In this document: piece after piece, positions 16,426-24,686 of the stretch
How the letters are laid out: each line of letters starts with the position of its first letter
How positions within the stretch are numbered: position 1 is the first letter of the stretch
Source: a virus
Strand: one strand, 5' to 3'
IMG/VR virus record: IMGVR_UViG_3300046777_000741
Location: 1-57,474 of that record
DNA: 57,474 bases
Notes under the pieces: model-generated
Database searches by the model: none
Seen by the model: the letters and a program-made list of their open reading frames with translations, nothing else
Told to the model about the DNA's origin: nothing
Position numbers and translations under genes: made by a program

Positions 16426-16517
16426 AGCGGAGCGTCCTCGTGGTTGTCAGGATTGAAGGGGATGCGATCGCCCGGGCGGGGGTGCTGGAAGTCAGCAGGG
16501 GGGAATGGCCAGTTCAT
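16416..16517 (-). CDS. Tiny ORF, 33 residues
   Basis: The ORF reads MNWPFPPADFQHPRPGDRIP and ends in HEDAPLWN. It overlaps the membrane protein stop upstream as ATGA and the next start by 10 bases, so it fills the operon exactly. Pro, Trp and Asp are frequent. No domain was recognised; the arrangement supports that it is expressed. Confidence 0.5.
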   Translation of the reverse strand: MNWPFPPADFQHPRPGDRIPFNPDNHEDAPLWN

Positions 16518-16750
16518 TTAGATGCCCCCCAGGCCAGCAACAGGGAGATGGCGCCTACCAGCAGCGCACCATAGACCACCCATTCAGCGATCTCAATTAT
16601 TCCGAGGCGGGGGCGATGTCCAAGCAAAGCTGCCTGGATAAGCTCTTCGTCGGCGGTCAGGCGGGCGAGGGGGCGTTGATAGAGCGATCCAATCTGGATG
16701 CCCGTCTTGGTGGTGTACGGCACGATGCCGCTTTGACTTGCTTTCTTCAC
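16514..16750 (-). CDS. Single-pass membrane protein, first gene of leftward operon
   Basis: This 78-residue protein has a short polar N-terminus (SQSGIVPYTTKTGIQIGSLY) and a C-terminal transmembrane helix (WVVYGALLVGAISLLLAWGA). GTG 16750 is chosen because AAAGGA ends 6 bases before it. An in-frame ATG at 16756 directly abuts that site and is too close. It is the promoter-proximal gene of the leftward early operon. Function unknown. Confidence 0.65.
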   Translation of the reverse strand: MKKASQSGIVPYTTKTGIQIGSLYQRPLARLTADEELIQAALLGHRPRLGIIEIAEWVVYGALLVGAISLLLAWGASK

Positions 16751-16787
16751 TTTCATTCCTTTCTGAAAACGCCTACAGCGCAGAAGC

Positions 16788-16843: not shown

Positions 16844-16860
16844 TTGAATTCCAGATTCAA
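16844..16860. promoter_or_regulatory. Operator O1, perfect 17-bp inverted repeat
   Basis: TTGAATTCCAGATTCAA is a perfect TTGAAT-N5-ATTCAA palindrome immediately upstream of TATACT (16863-16868) and the repressor gene. The same TTGAA-N7-TTCAA pattern occurs at 20295, 22237 and 24389. It is the natural binding site for the adjacent YdaS/Cro-like protein, giving autorepression. Confidence 0.65.
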
Positions 16861-16862
16861 GC

Positions 16863-16868
16863 TATACT
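16863..16868 (+). promoter_or_regulatory. -10 element of the repressor promoter
   Basis: TATACT ends 7 bases before ATG 16876. There is no Shine-Dalgarno sequence in those 7 bases (CCGGCGC). Transcription would begin at or next to the ATG, so the mRNA may be leaderless. The -35 region is poor (a T-run), so the promoter may be weak or need help. Confidence 0.5.
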
Positions 16869-16875
16869 CCGGCGC

Positions 16876-17076
16876 ATGAACCTAGCACAGTATTTTTCAG
16901 AGGAGCCGCGAGGGGCGAAGATCGAGATGGCCCAGTATCTGGGCATCAGTGCCGAATGGATGTCCAAGATCATCCATGGCAAGGTCAAGCCCGGAGCGGC
17001 CCTGTGCTACAAGATTGAGAAGGCTACGCAGGGGTTGGTGACGCGCAGGGAGTTGCGTCCTGACCTGTTTGCGTAG
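16876..17076 (+). CDS. YdaS/Cro-like helix-turn-helix repressor
   Basis: This 66-residue protein starts MNLAQYFSEEPRGAKIEMAQ and continues YLGISAEWMSKIIHGKVKPG, then KIEKATQGLVTRRELRPDLF. This is the layout of YdaS/Cro-like DNA-binding proteins, with a helix-turn-helix at about 18-42 and the conserved VTRRxLRPD end. It should bind a short palindrome as a dimer. O1 and an O2-like repeat lie in its divergent promoter region. ATG 16876 is used rather than further upstream starts because the family begins here. No YdaT-like partner and no CI-type repressor are visible. Confidence 0.82.
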   Translation: MNLAQYFSEEPRGAKIEMAQYLGISAEWMSKIIHGKVKPGAALCYKIEKATQGLVTRRELRPDLFA

Positions 17077-19945: not shown

Positions 19946-20298
19946 AGATCGAGCTTGACTTCCCGCCCGCGGAGCTTTTCCCGAATCGGTCGAAGGGCAA
20001 GCATTGGTCGGTCACGCATACAGCCCGCTCGAACTACCGGCAGGTCTCCGGCTGGCTGACCAAGCATCAGATGAAGGACTGGAAACCCACTGATGCCCAG
20101 ATCCGGCTGACCATCACCTTCCTGATGCCCGATAAACGCCTGAGGGACACCGATAACTGCCTTGCCGCGGCCAAGGCTGGTCTCGATGGCATGGCCGATG
20201 CACTGGGTGTGAACGATCGCCAGTTCCAACCCGTGATCGTTTATCGACAGCATGGTGAGAAGCCCGGAAAAATGATCGTGGAGCTTGACATTATTTGA
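19942..20298 (+). CDS. rusA: RusA-like Holliday junction resolvase
   Basis: This 118-residue protein has PNRSKGKHWSVTHTARSNYR (14-33) and RDTDNCLAAAKAGLDGMADA (68-87). D69, D71 and D92 are candidate metal-binding aspartates, and DN...K...DG is typical of RusA. It should resolve branched DNA before packaging and act with the phage recombination proteins. Start ATGA overlaps the preceding stop. Length matches RusA (about 120). Confidence in the fold is good; activity is inferred. Confidence 0.85.
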   Translation: MKIELDFPPAELFPNRSKGKHWSVTHTARSNYRQVSGWLTKHQMKDWKPTDAQIRLTITFLMPDKRLRDTDNCLAAAKAGLDGMADALGVNDRQFQPVIVYRQHGEKPGKMIVELDII

Positions 20299-20313
20299 AT
20301 ATTAAATTCAAAT
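20285..20313 (+). promoter_or_regulatory. Promoter with operator O3 in its spacer
   Basis: TTGACA (20285-20290) and TCAAAT (20308-20313) are 17 bases apart. The 17-bp palindrome TTGAATATTAAATTCAA occupies 20295-20311, spanning spacer and -10 and overlapping the RusA-like stop codon. ATG 20321 begins 7 bases after the -10, exactly as for the repressor gene, so this transcript may also be leaderless. Confidence 0.6.
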
Positions 20314-20320
20314 ATTGATC

Positions 20321-20791
20321 ATGAGGAAAAGGAGTCGATATCGCCCTCGTGCGGTGTTTGTGAACCCGGTTGCTTATGTGCTCGAAGGGTTCACGCCGGT
20401 CTCGCGTCATGGTCAGTACCTGATCGATCTGAAGATCAAGAACCACGATGCACTGGCGGCCCTGACAAGGGGTCAGGCAACGCAGGCGGAGATAGAGCTT
20501 CTGATCTCATGCGCCAACATCACTGAGGCCCTCTATCGCATGGGCTTTGGCAACGAGTATGGGGATGTGGTCAAGCAGGGACAGGACTCACTTGTGGCTG
20601 TTGGTAGGCGTGGTGTTCAAACTGGGAAATTCATTTTGAAGGCGCAGGAGATGTCTGCTCTGAATCAACTGATGGAGTTGCATGACGCCCAGATGGAGGT
20701 CATCACCATCAAGGACATGGAGCAGGCCGTTGCGATTGTCAAAAAAGAGTTTGAGCAAAAGAAGATGCGATCCATCGTGGAGAAATCATGA
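20321..20791 (+). CDS. Conserved early phage protein
   Basis: This 156-residue protein opens MRKRSRYRPRAVFVNPVAYV and has ALTRGQATQAEIELLISCAN, then NITEALYRMGFGNEYGDVV and MELHDAQMEVITIKDMEQAV. The type is common in phages of beta-proteobacteria and has no assigned function. It begins at ATG 20321 rather than TTG 20315. No Shine-Dalgarno precedes it, which agrees with leaderless transcription from the O3 promoter. Confidence 0.75.
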   Translation: MRKRSRYRPRAVFVNPVAYVLEGFTPVSRHGQYLIDLKIKNHDALAALTRGQATQAEIELLISCANITEALYRMGFGNEYGDVVKQGQDSLVAVGRRGVQTGKFILKAQEMSALNQLMELHDAQMEVITIKDMEQAVAIVKKEFEQKKMRSIVEKS

Positions 20792-22193: not shown

Positions 22194-22220
22194 GGGAAAA
22201 CCCCTAGAAAATAGTTGGGT

Positions 22221-22294
22221 AAGGACTTCCCTGTCCTTGAATATTTTGTTCAAATTCAGTTACCGCGAAGTGCGGGTTATCGAAAGGAACTGAA
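22221..22294 (+). promoter_or_regulatory. Promoter-operator-leader cassette A (operator O4)
   Basis: A 6-bp hairpin AAGGAC/GTCCTT (22221-22238) abuts operator TTGAA-N7-TTCAA (22237-22253). TCAAAT (22250-22255) sits where the -10 lies in the O3 and O5 promoters. The leader carries CCGC-gaagt-GCGG and GAAAGGAACTGAA before ATG 22295. From operator start to ATG is 58 bases, exactly as in cassette B at 24389. Confidence 0.6.
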
Positions 22295-22588
22295 ATGAAC
22301 GCCAACGACATCGCCCTGACCCAAGTTGACAAGCTGGGTCTCCTGCTGGCCCAGATCGCTGAACTGACTGCTCAGGCCGACGCGATCAAAGATTCCATCA
22401 AAGATGCAGCCACTGCTGGTGGCGAAAAGGTTGTCGAGGGCAACCTCTTCAAGGCCACCGTGGTCGAGGCCAACCGCAAGGTCACCGACTGGAAGGCCAT
22501 CGCCAAGGTCTGCAACATCCCCGAGGATGTGATCATCGAGAACACCAAGGTCACCGCAGTGTTCTCGGTCAAGACGACCGCCCGCTGA
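22295..22588 (+). CDS. Hypothetical helical protein
   Basis: This 97-residue protein has an N-terminal helical half (VDKLGLLLAQIAELTAQADA, possible coiled coil) and a C-terminal half with KATVVEANRKVTDWKAIAKV. The type recurs in phages without known role. It is the first gene after cassette A, with GAAAGGA upstream of the ATG, so its expression should follow that promoter. Confidence 0.72.
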   Translation: MNANDIALTQVDKLGLLLAQIAELTAQADAIKDSIKDAATAGGEKVVEGNLFKATVVEANRKVTDWKAIAKVCNIPEDVIIENTKVTAVFSVKTTAR

Positions 22589-22601
22589 TCAGGAGGCCAA
22601 G

Positions 22602-22814
22602 ATGAACAAGTTCCACTTCTTCGCCACCTCTGTCGCTGAGTACCACGTTGACTCCGACCTTCGAGCCCTGATGAAATTCATGGACAAGCGTGGGTTCGAA
22701 TACGGCATCTGGTATGTGCCCGGTGATGTCAACGGCAGTGAGTACGAGATCAAGAGCTTTCGACCGCAAGTCGAAGGCTCGGTATTCCTCGGCAAATATC
22801 AACCCAAGAAGTAA
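22602..22814 (+). CDS. Hypothetical small protein
   Basis: This 70-residue soluble protein (HFFATSVAEYHVDSDLRALM, then GIWYVPGDVNGSEYEI) looks like a small alpha/beta fold. AGGAGGCCAAG precedes its ATG. It is 13 bases after the preceding gene and before a very stable UUCG hairpin. No family was assigned. Confidence 0.68.
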   Translation: MNKFHFFATSVAEYHVDSDLRALMKFMDKRGFEYGIWYVPGDVNGSEYEIKSFRPQVEGSVFLGKYQPKK

Positions 22815-22821
22815 TTAACCC

Positions 22822-22839
22822 CGGGGGCTTCGGCCCCCG
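22822..22839 (+). other. C(UUCG)G tetraloop hairpin
   Basis: CGGGGGC and GCCCCCG form a 7-bp stem closed by a UUCG tetraloop. No T-run follows, so it is not a standard terminator. It may protect the upstream mRNA 3' end or tune expression of the next gene. Closely similar hairpins follow the capsid gene (40178) and the basic GG-repeat gene (41678). Confidence 0.75.
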
Positions 22840-22853
22840 ATCAGGAGATCACC

Positions 22854-23042
22854 ATGACCACTGAACTCGACACCCGAATTGAAGCCACCAAGCGCGGCTC
22901 CTGCGTCTTCGTTGATAAATACGACGAGGGTGTGTGGCTCTCGATCCAACTGTCTAACGGCAGCGCCAACTGCACCCTGAGCATCGAGGCCGCCAAGGAG
23001 ATGATCGCGGCTCTGACGCGCATCGTGGAGGCTTCAGAGTGA
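22854..23042 (+). CDS. Hypothetical small protein
   Basis: This 62-residue protein (CVFVDKYDEGVWLSIQLSNG, then LSIEAAKEMIAALTRIVEA) has a short beta part followed by a helix. AGGAG lies 7 bases before the ATG. It overlaps the next gene as GTGA. Function unknown. Confidence 0.68.
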   Translation: MTTELDTRIEATKRGSCVFVDKYDEGVWLSIQLSNGSANCTLSIEAAKEMIAALTRIVEASE

Positions 23043-23749
23043 CTACTGCACTGGTTCGCTCTACCATGAGCCTTATGGCTGATGCTGGTATCGATCCAGT
23101 GGAGATGCACTGGTTCGACATGAGTGGCGCGTTCTCGAACACGCAGCGCGTCACCCTTGATCCACTGATGACTCACCGTCCCCCGTTTGAGAAGTGCATG
23201 GTCGTCTGGCGTGGAGCCACAAAAAGCAACCCAAGCTATGACGTACTCATGATGGTTGCTGGAAATGACCCCGAAGAGGGTATTGTGGTGTCTATGTGGA
23301 AAGGGCCGACCGGAACTGTCCTGCGCCCGATTCCGGGGATGGTTTACCTGATCGAGGATGACAACATCCGATATGGTGGACTTGATGATGAGCAGCCGGT
23401 GGACAAGGAGCTTGCCGAACTAATGCTCGCGCAGATTGGCGCTTGGTACGGCGCGATGGACAAACGGGTTGAGGTTTATGTGCCGTCGGTCAAGGACACC
23501 TTCACCAATCGCCGCAAAATCGCGCAAAAGAAGCGGCCTACCTACGACTGGAAGACTGTCTACATTGAGCCTGTAGCGCCCAAGGCCGAGCCGAAGGGAG
23601 GTACTCACGCATCACCGCGCCTGCATGACCGCCGCGGTCACTTGCGTCGGCTAAAGACGGGAAAGAATGTATGGGTCAAGCCGCATAAAGTTGGTGACGC
23701 CAGCAAAGGTATCGTTTTCCATGACTACGCTATTAAGGAGCAGGCATGA
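23039..23749 (+). CDS. Conserved early phage protein with basic C-terminus
   Basis: This 236-residue protein from GTG 23039 has an alpha/beta N-terminal two thirds. The C-terminus THASPRLHDRRGHLRRLKTG, then VWVKPHKVGDASKGIVFHDY, is strongly basic with several His and Arg residues. That end recurs in phage proteins of unknown function and could bind nucleic acid. It is coupled to the upstream gene by GTGA and followed by a 44-residue ORF. Confidence 0.68.
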   Translation: MTTALVRSTMSLMADAGIDPVEMHWFDMSGAFSNTQRVTLDPLMTHRPPFEKCMVVWRGATKSNPSYDVLMMVAGNDPEEGIVVSMWKGPTGTVLRPIPGMVYLIEDDNIRYGGLDDEQPVDKELAELMLAQIGAWYGAMDKRVEVYVPSVKDTFTNRRKIAQKKRPTYDWKTVYIEPVAPKAEPKGGTHASPRLHDRRGHLRRLKTGKNVWVKPHKVGDASKGIVFHDYAIKEQA

Positions 23750-23880
23750 ACCGCGACGAAATCATCAAGCTGGCGCACAAAGCTCAGTTCGAAGGTTTTG
23801 GCAATGGCGATTGGGTTTGCACCACCGAAGAAATTGAACGCTTCGCCGCCCTTATCGCCGCAGCCAAGGAGCAAGCATGA
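23746..23880 (+). CDS. Small ORF, 44 residues
   Basis: The ORF reads MNRDEIIKLAHKAQFEGFGN and continues with DWVCTTEEIERFAALIAAAK. This pattern is common in small phage early proteins. AAGGAGCAGGC gives the ribosome site, and both ends overlap neighbours by 4 bases (ATGA). Function unknown. Confidence 0.7.
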   Translation: MNRDEIIKLAHKAQFEGFGNGDWVCTTEEIERFAALIAAAKEQA

Positions 23881-24275
23881 GCATCGACGTGATGAAACAG
23901 GCGCTGGAGGCGCTGGACTCAGACAACCCAGACATTCAACTTAGAGCAGCCGCCGCCCTACGCCTCGCCATTGAGCAGGCCGAGAAGCAGGAGCCGGTGG
24001 CGTGGACTGGACTGACAAACGCTGAAGCCTACATTTTCATCAATGAGTACATCGGCCCTGTCAATGAGTGGAATCTAAAGGCTGTCCGCGCCATTGAAGA
24101 CAAACTTCGCAAGAAGAACACCGCCCCGCCCCAGCGCCAGCCGTTGACGGATGAGGAGCTAGATACTGTTACCCAAAAGTGGGCAGGCGCTCCGGTCGAT
24201 CTCCATCGCTTGGTGTTGTGCCGTGAATATGCCCGCGCCATCGAACGCGCCCACGGGATCGGGGGTGAGGCATGA
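23877..24275 (+). CDS. Hypothetical early protein
   Basis: This 132-residue, mostly helical protein (MSIDVMKQALEALDSDNPDI, then QPLTDEELDTVTQKWAG and LVLCREYARAIERAHGI) resembles the variable small proteins that fill phage early operons. A PPQRQPLTD linker separates two helical parts. It overlaps both neighbours by 4 bases. No function assigned. Confidence 0.65.
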   Translation: MSIDVMKQALEALDSDNPDIQLRAAAALRLAIEQAEKQEPVAWTGLTNAEAYIFINEYIGPVNEWNLKAVRAIEDKLRKKNTAPPQRQPLTDEELDTVTQKWAGAPVDLHRLVLCREYARAIERAHGIGGEA

Positions 24276-24367
24276 CTGCGATCTTTGTTGTCCTGCTGGC
24301 CCTGCTTGCATTTGGCATCTCTTCCCTGCTGGCGCTACTGATCGTCTTGGATATATATTCCGACTAA
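24272..24367 (+). CDS. Single-pass membrane peptide, 31 residues
   Basis: Almost the whole peptide is a transmembrane helix: MTAIFVVLLALLAFGISSLL, then ALLIVLDIYSD. GGTGAGGC precedes the ATG, which overlaps the previous stop as ATGA. It may modulate a host membrane protein, but nothing specific can be said. Confidence 0.55.
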   Translation: MTAIFVVLLALLAFGISSLLALLIVLDIYSD

Positions 24368-24378
24368 ATTGTGTGGGC

Positions 24379-24446
24379 TTTACAACTCTTGAAGTTTCTG
24401 TTCAAATACAGATACGGCAATGACGCCGGTTTAATGAAAGACAGAC
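24379..24446 (+). promoter_or_regulatory. Promoter-operator-leader cassette B (operator O5)
   Basis: TTTACA (24379-24384) and TCAAAT (24402-24407) are 17 bases apart with operator TTGAA-N7-TTCAA at 24389-24405, the same geometry as the O3 promoter. The leader has CGGC-aatgac-GCCG. From operator start the first 30 bases match cassette A at 24 positions, and both are 58 bases long before the ATG. Confidence 0.62.
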
Positions 24447-24686
24447 ATGACCTACATCACCACGATCGAGACCCAGATCAACGGCGAGTCCGTGACCCTT
24501 GGCGTCACCCACTTCGAGCGCCATGAGGGCAATGGCTCCATGTACAGCGCCGCCACGGATCTGGACTACTACGGCTGGACGGAGTGCTACTACGACATCC
24601 TCGATGAAGAGGGCCGTAAGCTGGCTATCGAGCCGAGCGAAAAAGACCTTGACCGCCTGCACTGCCTGATCGCTGAAACCCTGTGA
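24447..24686 (+). CDS. Hypothetical acidic protein
   Basis: This 79-residue acidic protein (TTIETQINGESVTLGVTHFE, then DYYGWTECYYDILDEEGRKL) is probably beta-rich. It is the first gene after cassette B, so it should follow the same repressor as the gene at 22295. The next gene starts 12 bases after its stop. No family recognised. Confidence 0.68.
   Translation: MTYITTIETQINGESVTLGVTHFERHEGNGSMYSAATDLDYYGWTECYYDILDEEGRKLAIEPSEKDLDRLHCLIAETL

What the first reader, a model, noticed from the sequence alone, without database searches (positions are those of the whole stretch)
22237..24446. Duplicated promoter-operator-leader cassettes with a covarying hairpin
Sequences 22237-22294 and 24389-24446 are both exactly 58 bases from operator start to start codon, match at 24 of the first 30 positions, and then carry CCGC-gaagt-GCGG and CGGC-aatgac-GCCG. 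The second base pair is C-G in one and G-C in the other, a compensatory change that points to selection for RNA structure. Each drives a separate set of small unknown genes. This looks like a dedicated early-expression element, possibly bound by an antiterminator or translation regulator.
Basis: seen in the sequence. Interest (0 to 1): 0.7.

Follow-up and report, generated by a model that had tools for sequence, protein, structure and literature searches.

The report
Phage early mRNAs begin with hairpins
In this phage and many of its relatives, promoters of small early-type genes seem to start their messenger RNA with a little hairpin at the very first bases, most likely to protect the message from the host's RNA-degrading machinery; it looks like an undescribed standard part, but its function still has to be tested.

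Summary
TTGAA-N7-TTCAA occurs exactly four times in the window (expected 0.05). One copy lies in the promoter of a YdaS/Cro-like gene, so it is probably that repressor's operator. Among 35 leader clusters (33 from relatives of the 97-aa gene, plus both window copies), a stem starts 6-8 nt after an independently predicted -10 in 19, against 1.7 in shuffles. Permuting 3' halves gives 5.2, maximum 13 in 10,000. In close relatives, pairs pass through C-G/U-G/U-A and G-C/G-U/A-U, so selection acts on RNA. The module precedes many unrelated small genes on both strands, but not the repressor gene (1 of 26 clusters). Best explanation: a repressor-controlled early promoter whose transcript begins with a 5'-terminal hairpin that blocks RppH/RNase E-type decay; start site and function are inferred. 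Nut- or put-type antitermination is not supported. Loop bias leaves a dedicated binding protein possible.

The parts
22237..22253 (+). operator-like inverted repeat TTGAA-N7-TTCAA (copy 1), overlapping the predicted -10
22250..22255 (+). predicted -10 TCAAAT; predicted start A at 22262
   Evidence: 7 nt before the hairpin as in relatives; the weight matrix preferred another hexamer here; no transcript mapped; -35 poor
22263..22275 (+). 5'-terminal hairpin CCGC-GAAGU-GCGG
   Evidence: (model R2 trained without window copies, E 0.017)
22283..22288 (+). Shine-Dalgarno AAAGGA
   Evidence: sequence
22295..22588 (+).
24389..24405 (+). operator-like inverted repeat TTGAA-N7-TTCAA (copy 2)
24402..24407 (+). 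predicted -10 TCAAAT with TTTACA 17 nt upstream; predicted start A at 24414
24415..24428 (+). 5'-terminal hairpin CGGC-AAUGAC-GCCG
   Evidence: (E 1.1e-5)
24436..24441 (+). Shine-Dalgarno-like GAAAGA
   Evidence: sequence
24447..24686 (+). 79-aa gene of unknown function; homologues at 30 places of the held sequences, some with the same kind of leader
16769..16781 (-). third, weaker hairpin at the head of the leftward transcript (CGCU-GUA-GGCG with a U.G pair), 7 nt after CCTAAT; G instead of A before it
   Evidence: homologous genes in 24 loci including the window. Not found by model R2
16514..16756 (-). first leftward gene (80 aa), family whose leaders carry the hairpin
16844..16860 (+). operator-like inverted repeat TTGAA-N7-TTCAA in the promoter of the repressor gene
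16876..17076 (+). YdaS/Cro-like HTH gene, ATG 7 nt after -10 TATACT (leaderless or nearly so), no hairpin
20295..20311 (+). operator-like inverted repeat; -10 TCAAAT, ATG at 20321 is 7 nt after it (leaderless type, no hairpin)

Best explanation
The two sites are members of a standard early-promoter module of a large phage group; one member lies in a contig of a Limnohabitans MAG. Step 1 (inferred): the phage's YdaS/Cro-like repressor binds TTGAA-N7-TTCAA, which overlaps the -10 box in the hairpin promoters, and so controls this set of promoters and its own. Step 2 (shown by comparison, not by mapping): transcription starts at about the A that ends the 7 nt after the -10, and the RNA folds a 4-8 bp hairpin beginning at about +2. 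Step 3 (inferred): with only one or two unpaired 5' nucleotides, the transcript is a poor substrate for RppH and for 5'-end-tethered RNase E, so early mRNAs from both arms are stabilised. The Shine-Dalgarno sequence lies downstream, outside the hairpin. The repressor gene is made from the same kind of operator as a leaderless or nearly leaderless mRNA without a hairpin; that this keeps it from being boosted is a guess.
For: Operator: 4 exact copies in the window, expected 0.05, one in the promoter of a YdaS-family HTH gene (E 1.7e-11). In L010, L015, L024 and L025 the hairpin promoter and the repressor promoter share TTGAA-N7-TTCAA. Position: -10 predicted without use of the hairpin; stem start 6-8 nt after it in 19 of 35 clusters against 1.67 shuffled; windows wholly outside 5-10 give at most 4 of 35. 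All-start scan of 103 non-redundant loci: 92 stems at 7 nt (77 unique 30-mers), 2 to 21 at each spacing outside 5-8. Covariation: 19 of 35 against 5.2 (max 13 in 10,000) after permuting 3' halves; 100% of 88 cells paired with C-G/U-G/U-A and G-C/G-U/A-U in 11 distinct close relatives. Other families: leftward gene 9 of 11 clusters against 4.9, p 0.0016; g24698 6 of 11 against 1.5, p 0.003; negative control, repressor gene, 1 of 26 against 2.0. Stems free in sequence: 30 of 50 loci with two or more hairpin leaders use different stems, though a few of these pairs include a likely false hit. Decay enzymes: RppH and RNase E families score over cut-off in a Limnohabitans MAG that holds a relative. 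[quoted passage not shown]
Against: No transcript start, half-life or repressor binding has been measured. The stems are short; with coding sequence present copy 1 forms the hairpin with probability 0.36. Loops are not random: first loop nt A in 16 of 19 clusters, closing C-G in 15 of 19, AATAA in 29 of 80 unique pattern sites; a pure 5' cap would not need that. 16 of 35 clusters score no stem at 6-8 nt (five of these, one being copy 1 of the window, by eye have one with another -10; about six have none). When the stem may lie anywhere in the leader, only 3 of 35 clusters reach p below 0.05. g24447 is weak (4 of 20, p 0.046) and f205 not significant (3 of 9, p 0.14). In one search two of five measures are not exceptional (pairs changed on both sides 102/500, further pair types 458/500). 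Model R2 finds nothing in Limnohabitans phage DC33, zth2-2, Itty13, Pavpe01 or CRP-902, although the first two have the gene; DC33 shows no such leader by eye.
Confidence: 0.55

Rival explanations
1. The hairpin is a recognition tag: a phage or host RNA-binding protein binds the stem plus the A-starting loop and regulates translation, stability or elongation of the early mRNAs.
For: Biased loop (A first in 16 of 19 clusters, closing C-G in 15 of 19; AATAA in 29 of 80 unique pattern sites); presence on both arms.
Against: Stems vary freely within one phage; accepted loops range from 3 to 14 nt (settings); the loop bias may be common descent of a copied module; the tight spacing to the -10 needs a separate reason.
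Confidence: 0.2
2. It is a transcription antitermination site of nut or put type acting on both early operons.
For: Hairpin leaders stand at the head of leftward and rightward operons.
Against: boxA-like 8-mers in 2 of 143 leaders against 4 shuffled; GNNNA pentaloops in 2 of 61; one small hairpin only, whereas put RNAs are about 70 nt with two stem-loops and putR lies about 270 nt from its start (PMC9378689, passages). Sites beyond the start codon were not tested.
Confidence: 0.06
3. The element mainly helps translation: a 5' hairpin keeps the Shine-Dalgarno region open or serves as a standby structure.
For: Distance from the pattern end to the start codon is restricted (mostly 16-24 nt); the Shine-Dalgarno lies outside the hairpin.
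Against: Does not explain the fixed distance to the -10. In copy 2 the leader MFE pairs part of the Shine-Dalgarno region in a second weak stem. Accessibility was not tested systematically.
Confidence: 0.1
4. The inverted repeat is a second DNA operator, not an RNA structure.
For: It is an inverted repeat beside an operator-like palindrome.
Against: G.U states keep 100% pairing and would break a DNA palindrome; stems differ within one phage; the loop bias is strand-asymmetric.
Confidence: 0.03
5. The Cro/YdaS-like repressor binds both the DNA operator and the RNA hairpin, as reported for Aca2 (recalled; searches did not bring up that paper).
For: Operator and hairpin stand side by side at 22237 and 24389.
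Against: Stems vary within a phage whose operator is constant; the repressor's own leader lacks the hairpin.
Confidence: 0.05

Closest known systems
5'-terminal stem-loop mRNA stabilisers (E. coli ompA, papA; cited in PMC3997798, passages and reference lines seen)
   Same: stem close to the RNA 5' end, pairing rather than sequence kept, RppH/RNase E decay machinery in a related host
   Different: here a repeated module before many genes of many phages, at a constant distance from the -10 and beside a shared operator; no stability measured
T4 gene 32 5' leader / CUUCGG hairpins (PMC8948821, passages)
   Same: phage hairpin in a leader, reported to stabilise mRNA
   Different: not a UUCG loop; at the predicted start and multi-copy
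HK022 put RNA (PMC9378689, passages)
   Same: phage early leader RNA; putL also begins to pair at nt 3
   Different: put is about 70 nt with two stem-loops and acts on RNA polymerase; this is one hairpin of 12-19 nt (commonest forms) in a leader of median 36 nt
lambda nut (boxA-boxB; features recalled)
   Same: hairpins on both early arms
   Different: no boxA, loops not GNNNA, position at the predicted start
Lambdoid operator sets (Cro/CI-type control; recalled)
   Same: several copies of one palindrome at early promoters and at the repressor gene
   Different: operators are scattered over 7.5 kb before separate cassettes, two of which have the hairpin leader

Membership tests
5'-terminal stem-loop stabiliser | stem begins within a few nt of the RNA 5' end | tested here: inconclusive
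   Spacing to the predicted -10 puts it at about +2; start not mapped
5'-terminal stem-loop stabiliser | pairing, not sequence, is conserved | tested here: met
   but the loop is biased
5'-terminal stem-loop stabiliser | host has RppH and RNase E | tested here: met
   one Limnohabitans MAG; the window's own host is unknown
5'-terminal stem-loop stabiliser | prolongs mRNA half-life | not testable with these tools
   needs an experiment
lambda nut site | boxA next to boxB | tested here: not met
   between hairpin and ATG: 2 of 143 leaders against 4 shuffled; boxA forms recalled
lambda nut site | boxB GNRNA-type pentaloop | tested here: not met
   2 of 61 five-nt loops are GNNNA
HK022 put RNA | two long stem-loops, about 70 nt | tested here: not met
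   median 36 nt from one nt before the stem to the ATG; put features from PMC9378689
Any Rfam 15 family | match over the gathering score | tested here: not met
   0 in the window; at E up to 10 in 20-26 kb three weak hits, one (PhotoRC-I, E 2.9) on the reverse strand of copy 2
Cro/YdaS-controlled operator set | same palindrome at several promoters and at the HTH gene | tested here: met
Cro/YdaS-controlled operator set | the HTH protein binds the palindrome | not testable with these tools
   needs EMSA or footprinting
Aca2-type DNA- and RNA-binding regulator | hairpin carries a constant recognition sequence | tested here: not met
   stems differ within one phage while the operator is constant; a loop-only signal is not excluded; Aca2 features recalled

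The most novel reading that the evidence does not exclude
The hairpin is a phage 5' tag: a structure with an A-starting loop closed by C-G at the first nucleotides of the hairpin class of early mRNAs, read by a dedicated phage or host factor that marks phage messages for preferential survival or translation over host messages.
Probability: 0.2. Interest if true: 0.8.

Novelty: new variant of a known kind. Interest (0 to 1): 0.56.

Why it matters
5'-terminal hairpins that protect single mRNAs are known. Here the hairpin is a standard part of what looks like an early regulon, copied before dozens of unrelated small genes (49 families among the candidates, some of them false; 33 among the pattern sites), including an ArdC-type anti-restriction gene and one candidate before a DNA methyltransferase. 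The stem is rewritten again and again while position and pairing stay. That makes an open question testable: do phages shape their early mRNAs against the host's 5'-end decay pathway? A 2010 review of T4 says that the role of RppH in T4 mRNA turnover had not been determined (PMC3014915, passages). The module also gives a way to find early, perhaps anti-host genes in uncultured phages.

Tried and rejected
DNA palindrome instead of RNA hairpin: rejected by G.U states and by different stems in one phage. Nut and put sites: not met. Intrinsic terminator: no T-run after the + strand hairpins; near the cassettes one search lists only the reverse strand of copy 2 and a different stem at 22220, in a scan with 20 found against 13.5 in shuffles. 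Known Rfam RNA: none. Single-leader folding significance: weak. MAFFT alignments A2 and A3 do not align the stems because loops differ in length; model R1 built on A3 and the pair count on it are therefore void, with pairing below the shuffles, and R1 was not used for any search. A5 and R2 use only loop-6 leaders chosen for a stem, so the pair count on them is partly circular; R2 served only as an out-of-sample search. The 171 leaders and the fold statistics come from leaders chosen for a stem, and the 171 hold some likely false hits (for example L073 minus 5844, L109 minus 7219, L018 5750). Several loci are pieces of the same contig; duplicates were removed by sequence, not by contig. A search with the 79-aa protein of copy 2 found no relative in viral contigs, though several seeds found homologues in held loci. 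Near-DNA search in phages: no match. Cultured phages with the module: the proteins were used as bait; only records were looked at. No binding protein was sought. Prior reports were sought (open-access library only); their listings, and the passages read, showed no description of this element.
Full report
OBSERVATION. The two 58-nt cassettes are exactly as described: 24 of the first 30 positions and 34 of 58 are identical, and the ATGs are at 22295 and 24447. Their shared 27-nt pattern occurs nowhere else in the window with up to 3 mismatches. The left part is an inverted repeat, TTGAA-N7-TTCAA, with four exact copies in the window at 16844, 20295, 22237 and 24389, against 0.05 expected.

THE OPERATOR. 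The copy at 16844 lies in the promoter of a 66-aa HTH protein of the YdaS family (Pfam PF15943, E 1.7e-11; PHROG 35, transcriptional repressor, E 2.2e-10). In L010, L015, L024 and L025 the same palindrome stands both at the HTH gene and at the hairpin promoter of the 97-aa gene. In other relatives the hairpin promoter carries a different palindrome, for example TTTAACnnnGTTAAA. The simplest reading is repressor operators that change with the repressor; binding is not shown, and I did not test co-variation of operator and repressor.

TWO KINDS OF PROMOTER. At 16844 and at 20295 an ATG follows 7 nt after the predicted -10 (TATACT, TCAAAT), so these mRNAs are leaderless or nearly so. At 22237 and 24389 the hairpin starts at that same distance, after 7 nt that end in TA. 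The leftward gene (ATG 16756, minus strand) has a third, weaker hairpin 7 nt after CCTAAT, with a U.G pair and a G instead of A before it; model R2 does not find it.

RELATIVES. Relatives of the 97-aa protein gave 80 loci from viral contigs (98 confirmed, best 80 kept). Two GenBank phages, Limnohabitans phage DC33 and phage zth2-2, also have the gene. From 154 loci, some of them pieces of the same contig, I took 154 leaders. With the two window copies these are 91 unique 55-nt leaders and 35 clusters at 75% identity; the representatives are the two window copies and 33 leaders of this gene from relatives.

POSITION TEST. The -10 was chosen by a weight matrix alone. A stem of at least 4 Watson-Crick pairs starts 6-8 nt after it in 19 of 35 clusters, against 1.67 when the downstream part is shuffled; windows wholly outside 5-10 nt give at most 4 of 35. 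Five further clusters (W1, L126, L142, L153, L068) show the stem by eye with another -10, and about six (L110, L115, L067, L071, L082, L086) show none; these are not added to the count. Over ATG starts with a Shine-Dalgarno-like site in 103 non-redundant loci (1.14 Mb, window included), 92 stems lie at 7 nt, against 2 to 21 at each spacing outside 5-8. The stem is preceded by CA or TA in 12 of 19 clusters, the usual initiating dinucleotide (recalled). The hairpin thus starts at about +2. When the stem may lie anywhere in the leader, single leaders are not significant (3 of 35 with p below 0.05).

COVARIATION. Exchanging 3' halves among the 35 clusters lowers the count from 19 to 5.2 on average (sd 1.9, maximum 13 in 10,000). 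In 13 close relatives (11 distinct rows) with an 8-bp stem, all 88 cells pair. One pair occurs as C-G, U-G and U-A, another as A-U, G-U and G-C. The covariation score, the share of paired cells and the cells changed on both sides are each reached by 3 of 500 shuffles; the number of pairs changed on both sides (102/500) and of pair types (458/500) is not exceptional. G.U pairs hold in RNA but break a DNA palindrome.

OTHER GENES. The leftward gene family is independent evidence: 24 homologues, 11 clusters, stem at the right place in 9 (permuted 4.9, p 0.0016). g24698: 6 of 11 (1.5, p 0.003). g24447, the gene behind copy 2: 4 of 20 (1.5, p 0.046); by eye many of its homologues lie inside an operon. 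f205: 3 of 9 (1.5, p 0.14). The repressor gene as negative control: 1 of 26 (2.0, p 0.88). In all, 171 candidate leaders in 80 loci precede 49 protein families (some are false). Among them are an ArdC-type anti-restriction protein (PF08401, E 8.3e-12), DUF932 and a cytosine methyltransferase. Of 72 loci with accepted leaders, 50 have two or more, and 30 of these use different stems; a few of those pairs include a likely false hit.

MODEL SEARCH. A covariance model from 13 leaders of relatives, none from the window, has the two reported sites as its two best hits in the window on both strands (E 1.1e-5 and 0.017; the third and last, E 0.92, has no stem). In 50 loci that I chose it gives 58 matches at E up to 5 (I did not check each one). 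In six stretches of GenBank phages it finds two sites, both in MW202545 (E 0.0007 and 0.001), and nothing in Itty13, Pavpe01, CRP-902, DC33 or zth2-2. By eye, the Pseudomonas phages Itty13 and Pavpe01 have similar leaders before the g24698 homologue, with an ambiguous -10 in Itty13.

COLLECTION SCAN. Of 125 sites in the 114 new test loci (80 unique 28-mers) 119 are followed by a Shine-Dalgarno and start within 55 nt, of 12 control sites 2. 61 of the 114 test loci hold a relative of the 97-aa gene in the DNA held; for the rest the gene may lie outside the stretch.

FUNCTION. RppH and RNase E rely on single-stranded 5' ends, which explains stabilisation by 5' structures (PMC3997798), and both families are over cut-off in a Limnohabitans MAG. 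A stem at +2 is what such protection needs. Leaders alone fold the stem with median probability 0.98; with 36 nt of coding sequence 0.91 (n=143, leaders chosen for a stem; window copies 0.36 and 0.93). Against a pure end cap stands the loop bias (A first in 16 of 19 clusters, C-G closing in 15 of 19; AATAA in 29 of 80 unique pattern sites), which leaves room for a binding protein. Antitermination is not supported.

KNOWN OR NEW. No Rfam family matches, and six literature searches in the open-access library showed no description. The mechanism proposed is known from single genes; the regulon-wide use is the new part.

Noticed in passing
16863-16878, 20308-20323; L010:182, L015:1479 and 4813, L024:784, L025:2446: The YdaS/Cro-like gene and the gene at 20321 start with ATG about 7 nt after the -10: predicted leaderless or nearly leaderless mRNAs, also in these relatives.
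   Followed up: partly
22822, 40182, 41681 (+), 28946 (-); also L089, L021, L154 before g24447 homologues: Stable GC-rich hairpins with a CTTCGG loop between cistrons, mostly without a T-run; they may be 3' stabilisers or processing sites.
   Followed up: no
L285 (Roseobacter phage CRP-902) 5749, 6377, 6965, 7514: Another phage with a repeated promoter-operator (around TGTGACAGATGTCATATAT) before several small genes, but no hairpin at the start by eye.
   Followed up: no
L021:2755-3519, L023:4852, L152:6187, L085:7572: ArdC-type anti-restriction protein family behind a hairpin leader; the L021 member also has an IrrE-like peptidase domain: a possible marker for early anti-host genes.
   Followed up: partly
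PQ492659.1 (L082): Limnohabitans phage DC33, tailed according to its paper, carries an Inoviridae taxonomy line in the GenBank record; likely a labelling error.
   Followed up: no
   Followed up: partly
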